A program made the translations under genes and the position numbers. From Sphaerochaeta globosa str. Buddy (GTDB taxonomy: Bacteria > Spirochaetota > Spirochaetia > Sphaerochaetales > Sphaerochaetaceae), in contig NC_015152.1 in NCBI RefSeq assembly GCF_000190435.1, positions 2,052,458 to 2,116,457 on the forward strand: a stretch of 64,000 nt of DNA, read 5' to 3'. Below the pieces are notes generated by a model. It was not told the DNA's origin. It did no database searches and saw only the letters and a list, made by a program, of their open reading frames with translations. Shown here one piece after another: positions 42,202 through 60,857 of this stretch (position 1 is the first letter of the stretch; every line of letters starts with the position of its first letter).

Positions 42202-42744
42202 TTAGTAATTCTTGGCAACAATCTCGAAATATGCTTGGGGATGGGCGCAAACAGCACATATTGCAGGGGCTTTCTTGCCAATGACGATATGACCACAGTT
42301 GGAGCACTTCCACATCTGGTCTCCCTCACGACTGAAGACCAACGAACCTTCGACATTCTTCAACAAGTCAAGATAGCGCTGCTCATGATGCTTCTCAATC
42401 GCTGCGACCATCTCAAAGAGGGTTGCAATCTTATTGAATCCTTCCTCGCGGGCAATCTTGGCAAAACCGGAATACATTTCGGTCCACTCATAGTGCTCGC
42501 CGGCGGCAGCATCCTTCAGGTTAGTAGCGGTAGTATGAATCTCTCCACCTTCCTGCAGGAGCTTGTACCAAATCTTGGCGTGTTCCTTTTCATTGGCAGC
42601 AGTTTCCTCAAACAGATTGGCGATCTGAACATACCCTTCCTTCTTGGCCTGGGAAGCGTAATACGTGTACTTGTTGCGTGCCATGGATTCACCTGCAAAC
42701 GCAGTATTCAGATTGGCTTCCGTCTTTGATCCTTTCAATTCCAT
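42202..42744 (-). CDS. rbr: Rubrerythrin
   Basis: Non-haem iron peroxidase that reduces hydrogen peroxide in anaerobes. The N-terminal ferritin-like four-helix bundle (about residues 1-135) has the diiron ligands in GES, ANEKEH and EKHHEQRY segments; the C-terminal rubredoxin-like domain has four cysteines at 147, 150, 163 and 166. The 180-residue length is classic. It begins 12 bp after the PerR-type regulator and is presumably in the same transcript, under peroxide control. Confidence 0.96.
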
Positions 42745-42755
42745 ACCTTACTCCT

Positions 42756-43160
42756 TCACTGCTTTTCGGCAGCATGCTTTTTTTGGCAATCGGGGCAAAC
42801 CCCGTTGAACACTATCTCGTAAGATTCAAGGACATATCCAAAGGTTTCAACATTCTTTGCGCAAAGGTTGATATCGTCAAACATCTCAATGTCACTCACC
42901 TGCTTACAATCAGTGCATTGGATATGGTAATGATTTCCCAATGTACGGTCGAAATGGTCAGGGCCACCAAGAACACGGATACGTTTTACCTTTCCTTCAT
43001 CAACCAGCATATTCAAATTGCGATATACCGTCGCTCGACTGATGGAAGGATGCTTCAGCACAATGTTCTCGTAAATTTGTTCAGCATTAGGATGATTGGT
43101 TGCAGTAGTAACTGCGTCCCATACCAGTCCCTTCTGTATTGTCTGTCGCTTCTCTTTCAT
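42756..43160 (-). CDS. perR: Fur-family regulator, PerR-like
   Basis: Metal-dependent repressor. From the ATG at 43160 it has 134 residues: a winged helix (NAEQIYENI, then ISRATVYRNLNML) and a metal-binding C-terminal domain with structural zinc cysteines at 82, 85, 122 and 125 and regulatory ligands H69, D71, H77 and H79. Gene order with rubrerythrin favours peroxide sensing (PerR) rather than iron (Fur). The AGGAA site fixes this start; the longer frame of 46 more residues covers the promoter. Its own promoter overlaps an operator-like sequence. Confidence 0.85.
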   Translation of the reverse strand: MKEKRQTIQKGLVWDAVTTATNHPNAEQIYENIVLKHPSISRATVYRNLNMLVDEGKVKRIRVLGGPDHFDRTLGNHYHIQCTDCKQVSDIEMFDDINLCAKNVETFGYVLESYEIVFNGVCPDCQKKHAAEKQ

Positions 43161-43173
43161 GGAATTTCCTAAA

Positions 43174-43223
43174 TGATATTGAATCTCAATAATTATGATA
43201 GTCCAAGCTAAACACAGTGTCAA
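43174..43223 (-). promoter_or_regulatory. perR-rbr promoter with overlapping Per/Fur box
   Basis: On the minus strand TTGACA (43223-43218), a 17-bp spacer and TATCAT (43200-43195). From the -10 box on lies TCATAATTATTGAGA, close to the Per box pattern TTATAATNATTATAA, then the inverted repeat ATTGAG-ATTCAAT. A repressor here would block its own promoter and rbr. Confidence 0.65.
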
Positions 43224-43251
43224 CAAGATACTGGAAAAACCGGGCACCCAA

Positions 43252-43276
43252 CAAGAAACCCCAGGTAAACCTGGGG
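43252..43276 (-). terminator. Terminator of the rlmK-like gene
   Basis: ACCTGGGG and CCCCAGGT (43269-43276 and 43259-43266) form an 8-bp stem, followed on the minus strand by TTTCTTG. Confidence 0.75.
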
Positions 43277-43298
43277 CTTCCTGTACAACAGGAATCAC

Positions 43299-45938
43299 TT
43301 ACTTATCTTTGTTTTTCCCATCTTCATCGAGCCAGAAGAATGAATCATTCTCGTTCTCTCCCCGTGTCTTGGTTTCACGGAACTTGTCAAAACCATAGGG
43401 TTTGGGGGAAGATTTACGTTCACGCTTCACTCTTGCATCTGCTCCTATCTCATCACGTGGTGCTGAGAATGCAGGACGATCTTCGCTTCTGCGGAATGCA
43501 GGACGTTCGGGCCTGTCGCCGTAGGGTCTTCTCTCTTCACGGTCGCCGGCTGGGCGGTCGCGGAATGAGGGACGATCACCAAAGGGCTTGCGGTCGTCGC
43601 GGTCATGGAACGAAGGACGTTCGGGCCTGTCGCCGTAGGGTCTTCTCTCTTCACGGTCGCCGGCCGGGCGGTCGCGGAATGAGGGACGATCCCCAAAGGG
43701 CTTGCGGTCGTCGCGGTCGCGGAACGAAGGACGTTCGGGCCTGTCGCCGTAGGGTCTTCTCTCTTCACGGTCGCCGGCTGGGCGGTCGCGGAATGAGGGA
43801 CGATCACCAAAAGGCTTGCGGTCGTCGCGGTCATGGAACGAAGGACGTTCGGGCCTGTCGCCGTAGGGTCTTCTCTCTTCACGGTCGCCGGCCGGGCGGT
43901 CGCGGAATGAGGGGCGATCACCGAAGGGCTTGCGGTCGTCACGGTCGCGGAACGAAGGACGTTCGGGCCTGTCGCCGTAGGGTCTTCTCTCTTCACGGTC
44001 GCCGGCTGGGCGGTCGCGGAACGAGGGACGATCCCCAAAAGGCTTGCGGTCGTCGCGGTCGCGGAACGAAGGACGTTCGGGCCTGTCGCCGTAAGGTCTT
44101 CTCTCTTCACGGTCGCCGGCTGGGCGGTCGCGGAATGAGGGACGATCACCAAAAGGCTTGCGGTCGTCGCGGTCGCGGAACGAAGGACGTTCGGGCCTGT
44201 CGCCGTAAGGTCTTCTCTCTTCACGGTTACCGTAGGAGGGACGGTCGCCTGCGGGACGGTCACGGAAAGACGACGGCCTCTCGCTTCTGTCGCCATAGGG
44301 TCTTCTCTCTTCACGATTGCCGTAGGAGGGACGGTCGCCTGCGGGACGGTCACGGAAAGACGACGGCCTCTCGCTTCTGTCGCCATAGGGTCTTCTCTCT
44401 TCACGATTGCCGTAGGAGGGACGGTCGCCTGCGGGACGGTCACGGAAAGACGACGGCCTCTCGTTTCTGTCACCATAGGGTCTTCTCTCATCACGGTTGC
44501 CGTACGCGGGGCGACGGTCATCATGACGAGGGCCTCTCTCTTCATTGCCTGTTCGCTCACGATCCATTCTTGGAGAGCGGGTAGCTTCAGTCTGTTCTGC
44601 TTCCCCGTCCTCTTCAAAAAGCGGAGCAATATCTTCATCATCCCAGTGAAGGGTCAAAAGGTCGTCTTCTACTTCATTGGCTTCGGTTTCATCAGCAGCT
44701 TCTTCAGTATCCTGTTCAAGATCAGAGGACTCTTCTTCCTGTACGGCTTCATCTTGTACACTCTCGGCAACTACGGCTTCTTCCTGTACAATTTCTTCTT
44801 GTGCACTCTCTGCTACTACGACTACGTCTTCTTGTACAGCTTCTTCTTGTGCAATCTCTGCTACAATTTTCTCTTCCTGTACTTCAATGTCTTTCAATGC
44901 TTTTTCTTTTTTCATACTTTCTACATCCACATGTTCTTCACGCTGGTCATTGCCAGCTTTTTTCTCAACGGTCCGCAGATCTGCTGCAGTTATCCGTACA
45001 TCCTGTTGCTTTTGCAGCAACCACGTCCTCGCCGTTCCGAGACGGCGGGTAAACCCAGGGGCTACGACCTGTGTTGTTATCTCTTGAACTTCAAATCCTC
45101 GAACTGCTTTCGTGTCCATCCTGAATGTTCCCAGATTTGTTGAGAACACCAGCTTTCCTTCCCTCGCCAATAGTGCATTCAGCACTTTCATCCAACGCTG
45201 ATAGTCTCTTTGGACATCAAAATCATAATCCATCTTCCTGCTGTTGGAAAAACTCGGTGGATCGAATACGATCAGGTCATACACCTTTCCACTCGAAAGC
45301 GCCTCAACAACATATTGCCACGCATCAGCGGCAATACAAGGATACATTACTGTGCTATACCCATTGTCAGCAAGATTCTTTTGTGCCCATGCAGTATACG
45401 TACTGGACAAGTCCACCGACTCAACGCTGGTGGCTCCTCCCCGGGCTGCATAGACCGAGAAAGCTCCTGTATAGGAGAATAGGTTCAGTACCCTGCAACC
45501 CTGGCTCACCGACTCAACCATCATCCTGGTAAGCATGTGGTCAAGAAACAAGCCAGTATCAATTCGCTTGGTCAAATCTACAGTAAAGAACAATTCATTC
45601 TCTGTGACTTGTAAAACCAACGAAGTTTCGCCCTGCAAGCTGTGTTGTTCCTTGCCGACCCGTTTCGGTCGACGATGGAAAATCACACGGTCTGCCTGAA
45701 TGTAAAGCATACGGGAGACGATATCGCAGCATATCAACTCCTCTTCTTCATCCAAGCCCTCATCACTGTAATCGGTGACCCTTGCATAGGGACCATAGAG
45801 ATCCACAGTAACCGGAAACCTTTCAAGGTTTCGATCATATACTCTCATACAAGTCGTACCGCTCTTAAGCATCATACGGCGCATTTTGAGAGCATTACCT
45901 TTCAAAATCTTGCTAAAATCCTTCTCTGTGTAATCCAT
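43299..45938 (-). CDS. RlmK-like 23S rRNA methyltransferase with long Arg-rich repeat tail
   Basis: Residues about 1-315 match the RlmK half of enterobacterial RlmKL, which makes 7-methylguanosine in 23S rRNA: MRVYDRNLERFPVTVD, DTGLFLDHMLTR, the SAM-binding LNLFSYTGAFSVYAA and the catalytic-type DPPSFSNSRKMDYDFDVQRD. Residues about 330-460 are acidic (many Glu and Val, with repeated AQEE). From about 470 to 850 the protein is tandem repeats of 30 and then 38 residues made of Arg, Asp, Gly, Pro, Phe and Tyr (DRPSFRDRPAGDR), ending in a basic tail. Total length is 879, against about 330-400 for a free RlmK. The RNA-binding role of the tail is inferred from its likeness to arginine-rich tails of RNA helicases. 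No THUMP domain is seen. The AGGAA site supports the start. Confidence 0.85.
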   Translation of the reverse strand: MDYTEKDFSKILKGNALKMRRMMLKSGTTCMRVYDRNLERFPVTVDLYGPYARVTDYSDEGLDEEEELICCDIVSRMLYIQADRVIFHRRPKRVGKEQHSLQGETSLVLQVTENELFFTVDLTKRIDTGLFLDHMLTRMMVESVSQGCRVLNLFSYTGAFSVYAARGGATSVESVDLSSTYTAWAQKNLADNGYSTVMYPCIAADAWQYVVEALSSGKVYDLIVFDPPSFSNSRKMDYDFDVQRDYQRWMKVLNALLAREGKLVFSTNLGTFRMDTKAVRGFEVQEITTQVVAPGFTRRLGTARTWLLQKQQDVRITAADLRTVEKKAGNDQREEHVDVESMKKEKALKDIEVQEEKIVAEIAQEEAVQEDVVVVAESAQEEIVQEEAVVAESVQDEAVQEEESSDLEQDTEEAADETEANEVEDDLLTLHWDDEDIAPLFEEDGEAEQTEATRSPRMDRERTGNEERGPRHDDRRPAYGNRDERRPYGDRNERPSSFRDRPAGDRPSYGNREERRPYGDRSERPSSFRDRPAGDRPSYGNREERRPYGDRSERPSSFRDRPAGDRPSYGNREERRPYGDRPERPSFRDRDDRKPFGDRPSFRDRPAGDREERRPYGDRPERPSFRDRDDRKPFGDRPSFRDRPAGDREERRPYGDRPERPSFRDRDDRKPFGDRPSFRDRPAGDREERRPYGDRPERPSFHDRDDRKPFGDRPSFRDRPAGDREERRPYGDRPERPSFRDRDDRKPFGDRPSFRDRPAGDREERRPYGDRPERPSFHDRDDRKPFGDRPSFRDRPAGDREERRPYGDRPERPAFRRSEDRPAFSAPRDEIGADARVKRERKSSPKPYGFDKFRETKTRGENENDSFFWLDEDGKNKDK
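43501..44500 (-). repeat. In-frame tandem repeats within the RlmK-like gene
   Basis: Two classes. A 114-bp unit recurs with exact 114-bp spacing: GGACGTTCGGGCCTGTCGCC begins at 43501, 43615, 43729, 43843, 43957, 44071 and 44185. A 90-bp unit then repeats three times (TCGCTTCTGTCGCC at 44281 and 44371, a variant at 44461). Copies differ by few bases, mainly synonymous or Arg/His (FRDR or FHDR). This is recent expansion inside a coding frame. Confidence 0.95.
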
Positions 45939-46017
45939 GACATTCCTAGTAGCTCTTTCTGCAACGCAGTGTATATGCTAATATGGAAAAAAGCTAGTGA
46001 AGCAAAGGATAAAAATA

Positions 46018-46491
46018 ATGGAAGAAGATGCACAGGCCTTTATCTTTGAACTCGAATCAAGGCATGAAGCGCCACTGACATGGAAAACCTATGCCACTTG
46101 GTATGGCAACAACCATGATACCTTCAGGGAATTCGGGGTTTTCTTCTATAGATGCAAAAACTCTTTCCACTTTGAAGATTTTGAACGAAATCCAACACTG
46201 TTCGGCATTTCTATTAAACCTAAAAAACCAAAAGGACCTTTCATTAAATATGAGGGTTCATTTTCTCTTGAAGAGGTTATAGATTCGAGACCAATCCCAA
46301 AAACATTGGCGTTAAAAGTCATCCAAGGAAGACGCGATGCCACTTCCATCAGGAATTCCAATATTTTTGACAAGGTGTTCAGACAGATGGTTGAGATGGT
46401 GACATTAAAAAACGGTACAGTTCATTTCTTTGAACTGATGGATCGAAAACAGTTTGTGAGTGAGTTGCAGCAAAGCAACAAGGAGGAATAG
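46018..46491 (+). CDS. Hypothetical protein upstream of phosphomannomutase
   Basis: Unrecognised 157-residue soluble protein starting MEEDAQAFIF. It is rich in Phe, Lys and Arg, with no signal, membrane helix or clear motif; FGVFFYRCKNSFHFEDFERNP near the middle is the most distinctive part. AAGGA lies 9 bp before the ATG at 46018. The pgm-like gene follows without any gap (stop TAG directly before ATG), so the two are coupled and a link to sugar-phosphate metabolism is possible. Similar small genes at this place are known to me only as hypothetical. Confidence 0.6.
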   Translation: MEEDAQAFIFELESRHEAPLTWKTYATWYGNNHDTFREFGVFFYRCKNSFHFEDFERNPTLFGISIKPKKPKGPFIKYEGSFSLEEVIDSRPIPKTLALKVIQGRRDATSIRNSNIFDKVFRQMVEMVTLKNGTVHFFELMDRKQFVSELQQSNKEE

Positions 46492-49167: not shown

Positions 49168-51930
49168 TTACTTCACAGGGTAGCTCTTCTTCAGGAACTC
49201 GATGAACACATCGCTCAACAGGGAACCTTCAGTAAGAACCTTACCGAACATGGTGTATCCATCACCGCCGGCAGCCATGAAGTCGTTGGTAGCAACCTTA
49301 TAGGTAGCATTACGATCGATGGCCTTGCCATTGAGAAGGACACGAAGGATGCGCTTGCCAGGGGCTGCAAAGCGGTTGTAAACAACCTGCAAATCAGTCT
49401 GGGAGAATGCACCATTCTGTTCGGGGAGCTTGCTGTAGCCATGCTCGAGAGCTGCATAGACGTCCGAACCCTTCACTTCAACAACAGTAATGATGTTGGT
49501 GAACGGTAGTACGTTAATGACATCGCCCATCGTCACGTTTCCAGCTTTCAGAGATGCGCGGATACCACCACCATTGGTAATGGTGAAGTCAGCACCACTC
49601 TCTGCAGTCATTGCCATGGTGATCAACTTGGAAAGGTTGGTCGCCTTGGTGCGGACGTTTGCACGTTCACCATCCAAGTTCTCAGGCAGTGTAGCAACAA
49701 GAGTGTTCAGCTTCTCGCTCAGCTGTGCAGACATATAACCGACATACTCATCGACCTGAGGATCGTTGGGGATATCAGAAATGCCGTACTGCTTGGCAAG
49801 GGCGGAATCCTTTGCATTCAGGACATCGGCTGCAGGAATCAGCATCGGATAGGTAGCGGTTACCTTACCGTTCTTAACATGCAACTGTACCAGTCCAAGA
49901 TTCTTCAAATAATCGCCAGTCTGAACAACCAGAGTATCACCAATCTTCATGCCCTCTTTGAGCAAGGTGTGACTGTGACCATCAACGAAGAGGTCGATAC
50001 CCTTGATTTTGCTGACAATCTTATCGGTGGTGAGACCGGAAGCTCCATCAGGATCCATACCAATGTGGCCGAGTACGATGATGTAATCAACATACTGTTT
50101 TGCCATATCGATTGCCATCTGGCCAATCTCAAAGATTTCTTCGTTGGCAAAAGTGATGCCTTCGACATTCTTCGGATGGGTCTTGGTGGCGGTATCAGGA
50201 GTGGTCAAACCAACAACAGCAATCTTAAATCCGTTGAAGTTGTACACCTGGTAGGGCTGGAACAGCAGATAGCCATTCTCATCCAATACGTTGGCGGACA
50301 GGACCTTGAGGTCAGTATACTCTTCAGCAAACTTTGCAGCTTCAATAAGACGATCAGCGCCATAGTTGAAGTCGTGGTTGCCTGGAGCAACTGCATCATA
50401 ACCGAGTGTGTCAAGCAGGACTCCTACGGTCTCGCCTTCAAACATGTTCGCAAGATTGGTTCCGTGAGTTACGTCGCCAGCATCAAGTACGAGAATGTTG
50501 TCGGTGAGAGCACGTCCCATCTTGAGCATGGTTGACAGCTTGGAATAACCCATGCCACCGTCAGCAGGAACGATACGTGCATGCACGTCGTTGGAGTGGA
50601 CGATGAACAGATCAAACTCTGCTGTACCTGCATCGTTCTTCACGATTTCGGTAACACCAAGCGGATATTCAACAGCTTTCGGGGCTGCTACTACAGGGGC
50701 GGGAGCCGGGGCGGGTGCTACGGGAGCAGGAGCCGGAGCGGGGGCCGGTGCAGGAGCCGGAGCAGGCACTGCTGCCTTCTTTACCGGGGTCGCACCAATC
50801 TTCGCAACAATGGCCGGATCCTCGGGCACGGTTACCATCAGCGTGTATCCCATCGCTCTGGCAAACGGCTCATAGGTCTTGGCAATTGCACTCTTGGCAG
50901 GCTCGAGAACGTCGGCTACAGGAAGCAGCATCGGATAGACAGCCTTCACTTCGCCATTGACTACGCTCAACTGCACAGCACCAACGCTCTTCAGTTGTTC
51001 GTCAGCCCTGACGATCAGGGTGCCGTTCACGGTCTTCGCCTTCGCAGAACCATTACCGTCAACAATCAAATCGATGCCGTCAATGTTCTGGGCTACCATC
51101 TCACTGGTGATCAGGCCTTCATCGCCCAAATCGCTCAGAATTACCAGGTAGTCAACATAACCCTTGGCAAGGTCGACTGCATACTGGGCACTGTCCAGAA
51201 TGATGTCGCTGGTGAAGCTTACGCCCTGGATCGGCTTCGGGGCTACCAGGCCGGCTACGCCAACCTTGAATCCGTTGAAGTCATAGATCTGATAGGGCTG
51301 GGCAACCAGGTAACCGTTCGCATCGAGGGCGTTTGCACTCAACGGGATGGCCTTCTTCGTTCCGGCGATGCCGGTAGCCAGCTGTATTGCCTGCGGGGTG
51401 TAGGCATCGTAGCCAAGCTCGTCAACGACTTCGGCCGCCAGCATTGCTGCCTGAGCGGGTACCTCACCGACATTGCCGCTGTTCAGAAGCAGCCAGTTGT
51501 CGGAGATCGCACGTCCGGCCTTCAGGGCGGTTGAGAACTTTGCCAGTCCCAGTCCACCGTTCTCGGCATAGATGTTGCCGTTCAGGTCGTTCGTATGCAC
51601 GATGAACAGATCGAATGCTTTCGCTCCGTCATCATTCTTTACAATTTCCTTCACTCCGTAGGGAAGCTCGATCTCTACGGGCTCAGCTACTACAGGGGCC
51701 GGAGCCGGGGCAGGGGCCGGGGCGGGTGCTACGGGAGCAGGGGCCGGGGCTACCGGTGCAGGGGCGGGCTCAGGAACGGGTGCTACGGGAGCCACTGGCT
51801 CGGGAGCAGTTTCTACAACAGGAGCTGGGGGTATTGGTTCAACCTTTGCGGTGCTCTTACAGCCTACAAGGGAAAAAGCCAACAAAGCTACCAGCATTGC
51901 TGTCATAATTGTTCTTGAAAGACGTTTCAC
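49168..51930 (-). CDS. Duplicated 5'-nucleotidase-family lipoprotein, one domain degenerate
   Basis: Envelope nucleotidase of the UshA/2',3'-cyclic phosphodiesterase family. I start it at GTG 51930, since AGGAGG lies 6 bp upstream; this gives 920 residues with a lipobox LVGC (lipidated C24). After a Pro-Ala linker comes a first metallophosphatase domain (from about residue 112) whose metal ligands are lost: HTNDLNG for HTNDxHG, LNSGN for LDAGD, PQAIQL for PGNHDF, DGNGSA for DGHSHT. A second Pro-Ala linker leads to an intact copy (from about residue 445: HSNDVH, LDAGDVTHG, PGNHDFN, GHIG, DGHSHT) and the substrate-specificity C-terminal domain with NGGGIRASL and NDFMAAGGDGY. It probably recovers nucleosides from extracellular nucleotides. 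Confidence 0.9.
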   Translation of the reverse strand: MKRLSRTIMTAMLVALLAFSLVGCKSTAKVEPIPPAPVVETAPEPVAPVAPVPEPAPAPVAPAPAPVAPAPAPAPAPAPVVAEPVEIELPYGVKEIVKNDDGAKAFDLFIVHTNDLNGNIYAENGGLGLAKFSTALKAGRAISDNWLLLNSGNVGEVPAQAAMLAAEVVDELGYDAYTPQAIQLATGIAGTKKAIPLSANALDANGYLVAQPYQIYDFNGFKVGVAGLVAPKPIQGVSFTSDIILDSAQYAVDLAKGYVDYLVILSDLGDEGLITSEMVAQNIDGIDLIVDGNGSAKAKTVNGTLIVRADEQLKSVGAVQLSVVNGEVKAVYPMLLPVADVLEPAKSAIAKTYEPFARAMGYTLMVTVPEDPAIVAKIGATPVKKAAVPAPAPAPAPAPAPAPVAPAPAPAPVVAAPKAVEYPLGVTEIVKNDAGTAEFDLFIVHSNDVHARIVPADGGMGYSKLSTMLKMGRALTDNILVLDAGDVTHGTNLANMFEGETVGVLLDTLGYDAVAPGNHDFNYGADRLIEAAKFAEEYTDLKVLSANVLDENGYLLFQPYQVYNFNGFKIAVVGLTTPDTATKTHPKNVEGITFANEEIFEIGQMAIDMAKQYVDYIIVLGHIGMDPDGASGLTTDKIVSKIKGIDLFVDGHSHTLLKEGMKIGDTLVVQTGDYLKNLGLVQLHVKNGKVTATYPMLIPAADVLNAKDSALAKQYGISDIPNDPQVDEYVGYMSAQLSEKLNTLVATLPENLDGERANVRTKATNLSKLITMAMTAESGADFTITNGGGIRASLKAGNVTMGDVINVLPFTNIITVVEVKGSDVYAALEHGYSKLPEQNGAFSQTDLQVVYNRFAAPGKRILRVLLNGKAIDRNATYKVATNDFMAAGGDGYTMFGKVLTEGSLLSDVFIEFLKKSYPVK

Positions 51931-60225: not shown

Positions 60226-60857
60226 TTCTTAGCCTTTGCATCCTTATCAGCTTCGGCAGGAGCAGCAACAGCCACAGCTTCTTCAGCAGGAGCGACAGCT
60301 TCAGCCTTCACGCCCTTGACAGACGCAACCGTCTTGGCCAGGTCATCAAGAACCTTGACGTTGGCAGGAATCACTACATCCTTAAGATGGAGACTCTGGT
60401 TGATCTTCAAGGAAGTTACATCAGCTTCGAGAGCAGCGGGAAGGTCCTTGGGGAAACATTCAATTTCAACTTCATGCATGACCTGATCAAGAACACCACC
60501 CTCTTTGGTTCCCACAGGATTACCCTTGAGGACAATGGAGACCAAGGTGCGAAGAACCTGGCCACGGGTGACTTCAAAGAAATCTACGTGCTTGATCTCA
60601 GCGCGCATCAGGTTTTCCTGATAATCTTTCATCAGACACTCGTAGCTCTTCTTGCCAACTGAAATCTTCAACAGTGCGGTTTCAGAGAAATGGCGCATTT
60701 TGTTGGTAAATTCACGAGAATCCAAAATAATATGTACAGGCTCATTCTTTCCATAGATTACTGCAGGAATGCGCTTGGTGCGAAGCAAGCGGCGGGCACC
60801 TGCACTACCGAAATCCTCGGTTCTCAATTCCGCTTTCAAACTCTTGTTGTCAGACAT
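60222..60857 (-). CDS. rplY: 50S ribosomal protein L25 / general stress protein Ctc
   Basis: Binds 5S rRNA in the 50S subunit; in the long Ctc form it has an added C-terminal domain. From the ATG at 60857 (AAGGAG 7 bp upstream) it has 211 residues, with ARRLLRTKRIPAVIYGKN in the L25 part, then the beta-rich C-terminal domain (VLRTLVSIVLKGNPVGTKEGGVLDQ), and an Ala/Glu/Lys-rich tail. It heads the rplY-pth-tilS-ftsH-lepA series. Confidence 0.93.
   Translation of the reverse strand: MSDNKSLKAELRTEDFGSAGARRLLRTKRIPAVIYGKNEPVHIILDSREFTNKMRHFSETALLKISVGKKSYECLMKDYQENLMRAEIKHVDFFEVTRGQVLRTLVSIVLKGNPVGTKEGGVLDQVMHEVEIECFPKDLPAALEADVTSLKINQSLHLKDVVIPANVKVLDDLAKTVASVKGVKAEAVAPAEEAVAVAAPAEADKDAKAKK

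What the first reader, a model, noticed from the sequence alone, without database searches (positions are those of the whole stretch)
43299..45938. RlmK-type rRNA methyltransferase with a very long arginine-rich repeat tail
The catalytic third matches RlmK, but is followed by an acidic Val/Glu region and about 380 residues of tandem 30- and 38-residue repeats rich in Arg, Asp, Gly, Pro and aromatic residues. Such a tail resembles RNA-binding or condensate-forming tails of RNA helicases, not known rRNA methyltransferases. It could tether the enzyme to pre-ribosomes, replacing the THUMP-containing RlmL partner of the fused enterobacterial enzyme.
Basis: partly seen in the sequence, partly recalled or inferred. 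Interest (0 to 1): 0.75.

Follow-up and report, generated by a model that had tools for sequence, protein, structure and literature searches.

The report
Tailed RlmK-like methyltransferase of Sphaerochaeta
A whole family of spirochaete bacteria carries an enzyme related to a ribosomal-RNA methyltransferase, with a very long floppy tail of alternating arginine and aspartate and a conserved end motif also found in one of their RNA helicases; this suggests the tail docks the enzyme into a shared RNA-protein assembly, which has not been tested.

Summary
Window 43299-45938(-) encodes 879 aa: an RlmK-type domain (1-311), an acidic linker, and about 435 residues of Arg/Asp-rich tail holding in-frame 30- and 38-residue repeats.

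The tail is not a quirk or an assembly artefact. The gene is in 126 of 139 Sphaerochaetales genomes; nearly all sampled copies have a 110-650-residue tail. Repeat units differ between lineages, but composition, low charge segregation and a C-terminal KPYG[FY]D motif persist (motif in 40 of 41 tails).

The tailed enzyme is a separate paralogue. Tail-less relatives exist in other spirochaete families, and the tailed clade has lost several residues nearly invariant in RlmK, so an unchanged m7G2069 role is doubtful.

The "helicase-like tail" remark is partly right. The genome's DeaD-type helicase also has an R/D-rich tail with PYGxD; of 25 PYGxD DNA matches in the genome only these two sit in such a tail. 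The tail is a near-neutral polyampholyte, not a cationic RNA-binder.

Best reading: a diverged methyltransferase recruited by tail cohesion and a terminal docking motif to an RNP assembly shared with the helicase. Architecture near-certain; mechanism inferred.

The parts
43299..45938 (-). whole gene, 879 aa, tailed RlmK-like methyltransferase
   Evidence: ORF; orthologues
45006..45938 (-). RlmK-type class I SAM methyltransferase domain, residues 1-311
   Evidence: Pfam PF10672; NF008748 positions 395-703; PDB 3v8v/3v97 E 2e-55; Foldseek top hits 3v97/3v8v; folded in AlphaFold model
44574..44999 (-). acidic Val/Glu-rich linker, residues about 314-455
   Evidence: sequence; net charge about -35; low pLDDT
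44619..44669 (-). conserved linear motif EDDLLTLHWDD (residues about 424-440), [LVI]x[LVI]xW[DSE]
   Evidence: strict pattern in 26 of 41 tails, shuffled expectation 0.09
44197..44504 (-). 30-residue (90-bp) tandem repeats, 3.4 copies
   Evidence: TRF
43491..44227 (-). 38-residue (114-bp) tandem repeats, 6.5 copies, Arg/Asp mixed-charge
   Evidence: TRF; purifying selection between units; charge mixing z -5.8
43302..43403 (-). C-terminal conserved motif KPYGFDKFRETKTRGENENDSFFWLD...
   Evidence: PYG[FYM][DEG] in 38 of 41 tails (40 with KLYGFD), expectation 0.05; only copy of the whole motif in the genome

Best explanation
This is a spirochaete-family-specific paralogue of RlmK: a folded SAM-dependent RNA methyltransferase domain fused to a long intrinsically disordered, charge-balanced Arg/Asp tail that ends in a conserved docking motif (PYGxD...FFWLD). 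Shown here by computation: the domain assignment, the family-wide presence of the tail, predicted disorder, protein-level selection on the repeats, the conserved end motif, coexistence with a complete RlmKL, and loss of several RlmK-typical residues. Inferred: the terminal motif binds a partner that also binds the PYGxD motif in the tail of the genome's DeaD-type helicase, while the mixed-charge repeats act as a long, weakly cohesive tether. Together they would concentrate the methyltransferase where the helicase remodels RNA, probably pre-50S particles. The RNA target is probably not the m7G2069 site already served by RlmKL.
For: RlmK domain. Separate full RlmKL in the genome. Orthologues in 126 of 139 Sphaerochaetales genomes. 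All 42 sampled family members form one clade (100/100) beside the tail-less solo RlmK of a sister family, and RlmKL K-domains lie elsewhere. Solo relatives outside the family end 0-36 residues after the domain. Tails: R 20-33%, net charge per residue +0.03 to +0.10, FCR 0.44-0.67. Charges more evenly mixed than shuffled in most. pN well below pS between repeat units in most genomes tested. PYG motif in 40 of 41 tails, including a short one without Arg-rich repeats (G063). Disorder. Helicase tail with the same style and PYGxD: 12 of 23 genomes, expectation 0.03. Of 25 PYGxD DNA matches in the genome only helicase and methyltransferase lie in an R/D-rich C-terminal tail. Within-genome trigram similarity of the two tails exceeds between-genome similarity (p 0.0008, relatedness not controlled). 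Lost RlmK residues (E. coli numbering D686, H694, R527, D516, T682). Literature precedent: RNase E's disordered region with repeats and short binding motifs (PMC4435900); RlmKL linked to DeaD in 50S assembly in E. coli (PMC11194073).
Against: No binding partner, localisation or RNA target is known for either protein. The helicase motif is missing in 11 of 23 sampled genomes while the methyltransferase motif persists, so a shared partner is not obligatory. PYGxD is short, and Tyr, Gly and Asp are common in such tails. AlphaFold showed no confident structure for the motif. One small-genome relative (G017, 320 aa) has no tail. The RlmK-residue losses were not mapped to the active site, and two loops of the model (230-239, 290-300) were low-confidence.
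Confidence: 0.42

Rival explanations
1. The tail binds rRNA directly (multivalent Arg and aromatic contacts) and tethers the enzyme to its substrate or forms RNA condensates, with no specific protein partner.
For: Arg about 25-30% with 19-43 aromatic residues in the Arg-rich part in 13 sampled tails; same style of tail on a DbpA-domain helicase; bacterial IDRs can drive RNA condensation (BtRho, PMC13269538).
Against: Near-zero net charge and evenly mixed charges; alternating Arg/Asp peptides did not phase-separate in vitro (PMC9324279); does not explain the conserved terminal motif.
Confidence: 0.25
2. The protein is mainly a structural hub: methyltransferase activity is altered or dispensable, and the tail and end motif scaffold an RNP body in a genome that lacks RNase E/G.
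For: RlmK-typical residues lost; no RNase E/G hit in the genome; scaffold-like layout comparable to RNase E (PMC4435900).
Against: SAM-site and DPPxFSN residues are at least 95% conserved across tailed and untailed enzymes, which argues for retained catalysis.
Confidence: 0.18
3. It is simply the functional RlmK (m7G2069), redundant with the RlmKL K domain, and the tail is a lineage add-on that tethers it to pre-50S.
For: The FSNSxxM...FDVQRD stretch is closer to E. coli RlmK than the same stretch of the genome's own RlmKL.
Against: Complete RlmKL present; overall identity to E. coli RlmK is lower (37%) than that of RlmKL (46%); D686, invariant in all 23 untailed enzymes, is Gly in 40 of 41 family members.
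Confidence: 0.12
4. The tail is a neutral or self-propagating repeat expansion with no function.
For: Repeat units turn over quickly between lineages; one genome has a frameshift within the repeats (G110, 556 aa) and one lineage has no tail (G017).
Against: pN well below pS between units in most genomes, conserved composition and conserved end motif even where repeats are gone.
Confidence: 0.03

Closest known systems
RlmK domain of RlmKL (YcbY), E. coli, PDB 3V97/3V8V
   Same: Whole-domain sequence and fold match; SAM-site and DPPxFSN residues kept
   Different: Stand-alone, with a 566-residue tail; lacks D686, H694, R527 and other near-invariant RlmK residues; coexists with a full RlmKL
Stand-alone RlmK-like proteins of other Spirochaetota (for example the G387 protein, 316 aa)
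   Same: Same domain, closest relative in the tree
   Different: End at the methyltransferase domain, no tail; retain most of the RlmK-typical residues
[quoted passage not shown]
   Same: Arg/Asp composition, near-neutral, well-mixed charge
   Different: Those are eukaryotic nuclear-speckle proteins; here a bacterial RNA methyltransferase with lineage-specific tandem repeats and aromatic residues
RNase E non-catalytic region (PMC4435900)
   Same: Disordered, repeat-bearing region with embedded conserved short motifs on an RNA enzyme
   Different: Unrelated sequence and enzyme; partners unknown here
DeaD/CsdA-type helicase tail of the same genome
   Same: R/D-rich C-terminal tail with PYGxD
   Different: Much shorter, no long repeats, Lys-rich end, motif absent in about half of sampled relatives

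Membership tests
RlmK (23S rRNA G2069 N7-methyltransferase) | full-length RlmK domain homology | tested here: met
RlmK (23S rRNA G2069 N7-methyltransferase) | NCBIfam equivalog cut-off (466 bits, whole RlmKL) | tested here: not met
   271 bits over the K half only; the cut-off is for the fused protein, so this alone decides little
RlmK (23S rRNA G2069 N7-methyltransferase) | residues near-invariant in RlmK and stand-alone relatives (D686, H694, R527 in E. coli numbering) | tested here: not met
RlmK (23S rRNA G2069 N7-methyltransferase) | m7G2069 formation | not testable with these tools
   needs RNA mass spectrometry or m7G mapping
Split RlmK standing in for a missing RlmKL | RlmL/THUMP partner missing from the genome | tested here: not met
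   complete RlmKL found (L096:1605-4013, G000:C1 about 843.1-845.5 kb)
Arg-enriched mixed-charge domain | Arg plus Asp/Glu dominated, near-neutral, well-mixed charge, disordered | tested here: met
Arg-enriched mixed-charge domain | condensate targeting in cells | not testable with these tools
   needs imaging

The most novel reading that the evidence does not exclude
Sphaerochaetaceae, at least one of which has no detectable RNase E/G, organise RNA processing in a spirochaete-specific RNP body whose clients (this methyltransferase, the DeaD-type helicase) are addressed by Arg/Asp mixed-charge tails plus a PYGxD docking code, a bacterial counterpart of nuclear-speckle targeting, with the methyltransferase retargeted to a new RNA site.
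Probability: 0.15. Interest if true: 0.85.

Novelty: new variant of a known kind. Interest (0 to 1): 0.58.

Why it matters
It would be a bacterial case of a mixed-charge low-complexity tail retained across a whole family on an RNA-modifying enzyme, with fast-turning repeats but fixed composition and a fixed end motif. That makes it a clean natural system for asking what such tails do, with natural tail-less relatives as controls. The shared PYGxD motif gives a concrete handle: a short peptide that can be used to find the partner.

Tried and rejected
Replacement of RlmL: rejected. Assembly artefact: rejected (many genomes). Neutral repeat: disfavoured. Tail or end motif elsewhere in the genome by protein search: only self-hits; the helicase link came from inspecting DEAD-box tails. 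PDB search with the end motif: nothing. AlphaFold on the full protein and on a short-tailed orthologue to see whether the motif folds or docks: tail and motif have no confident structure. The + strand 455-aa ORF opposite the repeats and the alternative-frame 398-aa ORF are taken as by-products of stop-free repeats (inference). A literature search for Sphaerochaeta methyltransferase repeats found no report among its listed papers. The Kimura 2012 and Wang 2012 RlmKL papers were not held, nor the Greig 2020 mixed-charge paper.

Full report
Setting. The window lies in a single-contig 3.3-Mb genome (G000:C1:2052458-2116457) whose nearest named relatives are Sphaerochaeta and related MAGs.

Observation. 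The gene at 43299-45938(-) is an 879-aa ORF. Residues 5-311 align to the complete RlmK half of the RlmKL model, and the best solved structures are the E. coli RlmKL entries 3V8V/3V97, also the top Foldseek hits of the predicted model. After the domain come an acidic linker and an Arg/Asp-rich tail with a 90-bp array (3.4 copies) and a 114-bp array (6.5 copies). AlphaFold gives a folded domain and pLDDT below 50 for essentially all of residues 327-879.

The tail is a family trait. A search of 139 genomes of the order found the orthologue in 126 (my count of genomes with a match at E 1e-60 or better in the list), almost always with an open frame of 420 aa or more. Of the sequences read in full, tails ran from 110 to 653 residues. 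The clear exception is one 1.2-Mb genome (G017) with a 320-aa protein. Outside the family, the 16 sampled solo homologues end 0-36 residues after the aligned domain. In a 64-row tree the 42 family members form one group (100/100); their neighbour is the tail-less 316-aa protein of a sister family (G387), and RlmKL K-domains lie elsewhere. So the tail was most simply gained once, at the base of Sphaerochaetaceae (inference). The gene order (divergent to a conserved 164-aa ORF and pmm, near glnS) is kept across most of the family.

What is conserved in the tail. Repeat units differ by lineage, with best periods from 12 to 45 residues, but composition is constant: R 20-33%, few Lys, net charge per residue +0.03 to +0.10. 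Charges are more evenly mixed than in shuffled sequences in most genomes sampled; two or three short-tailed ones show no or a weak effect. Differences between repeat units are mostly synonymous: pS 0.132 against pN 0.012 in the window, with the same direction in nearly all other genomes tested and one clear exception, L004. The C-terminal PYG[FYM]D motif is in 40 of 41 tails (38 by strict pattern, two as KLYGFD), expectation 0.05; a second motif, LxLxWDD, is in 26 of 41 by strict pattern, expectation 0.09. The end motif survives in G063, where the Arg-rich repeats are gone, so it is the best-kept part of the tail.

Not a stand-in for RlmKL. The genome has a complete RlmKL with RlmL_1st, THUMP, UPF0020 and K domain, 809 bits against a 466 cut-off. 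The tailed enzyme keeps the SAM-binding and DPPxFSN residues, but residues nearly invariant in 23 untailed RlmK-type enzymes are replaced: D686 to Gly in 40 of 41, H694 and R527 to assorted residues (E. coli numbering). The sister protein of G387 still has these three. Changed specificity is therefore likely, but was not shown.

A link to a helicase. The DeaD-type helicase of this genome (DEAD, Helicase_C, DbpA domains) has an R/D-rich tail with DDYQPYGRDSYG. Its orthologues carry PYGxD in 12 of 23 genomes, expectation 0.03. A genome-wide pattern scan gave 25 DNA matches to PYGxD, fewer than the backward control, so the motif is not over-represented as such; but only the helicase and the methyltransferase place it in an R/D-rich C-terminal tail. 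Tail vocabularies are more alike within than between genomes (permutation p 0.0008), but shared ancestry and base composition were not controlled. In E. coli, RlmKL has been connected with 50S assembly in a strain lacking DeaD (PMC11194073), so a common pre-50S context is plausible.

Mechanism. Published peptides with alternating Arg/Asp do not phase-separate on their own, whereas blocky ones do and take up RNA; alternating domains still go to nuclear speckles in cells (PMC9324279). By analogy the repeat tail is better seen as a weak, long, cohesive tether than as a cationic RNA clamp, with specificity supplied by the end motif. RNase E is the precedent for a disordered, repeat-bearing region with conserved short motifs on an RNA enzyme (PMC4435900); no RNase E/G was found in this genome.

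Verdict. Architecture and family-wide conservation are established by computation. The RlmL-replacement idea is refuted. The tether-and-dock model is the best current explanation and is untested.

Noticed in passing
L120:217-2085 (G000:C1 about 989.0-990.9 kb, - strand): DeaD-type helicase with an R/D-rich tail and the motif QPYGRD, shared in style with the methyltransferase tail.
   Followed up: yes
45997-46491 +: 164-aa ORF without a Pfam match, divergent from the tailed gene and kept beside it in most of the family.
   Followed up: partly
42202-43298 -: Fur-family regulator and rubrerythrin genes directly downstream on the same strand, kept in the genus and some related genera.
   Followed up: partly
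L059 (G110): Frameshift inside the tail repeats shortens the open frame to 556 aa: sequencing error or real slippage.
   Followed up: no
L094 (G017): Orthologue of 320 aa without any tail in a 1.2-Mb genome, a natural deletion.
   Followed up: partly
window 50680-50766, 51695-51768 and 60247-60305: Further short-period tandem repeats (12-27 bp) in the window.
   Followed up: no
whole genome G000: No RNase E/G family match at E 0.001.
   Followed up: partly
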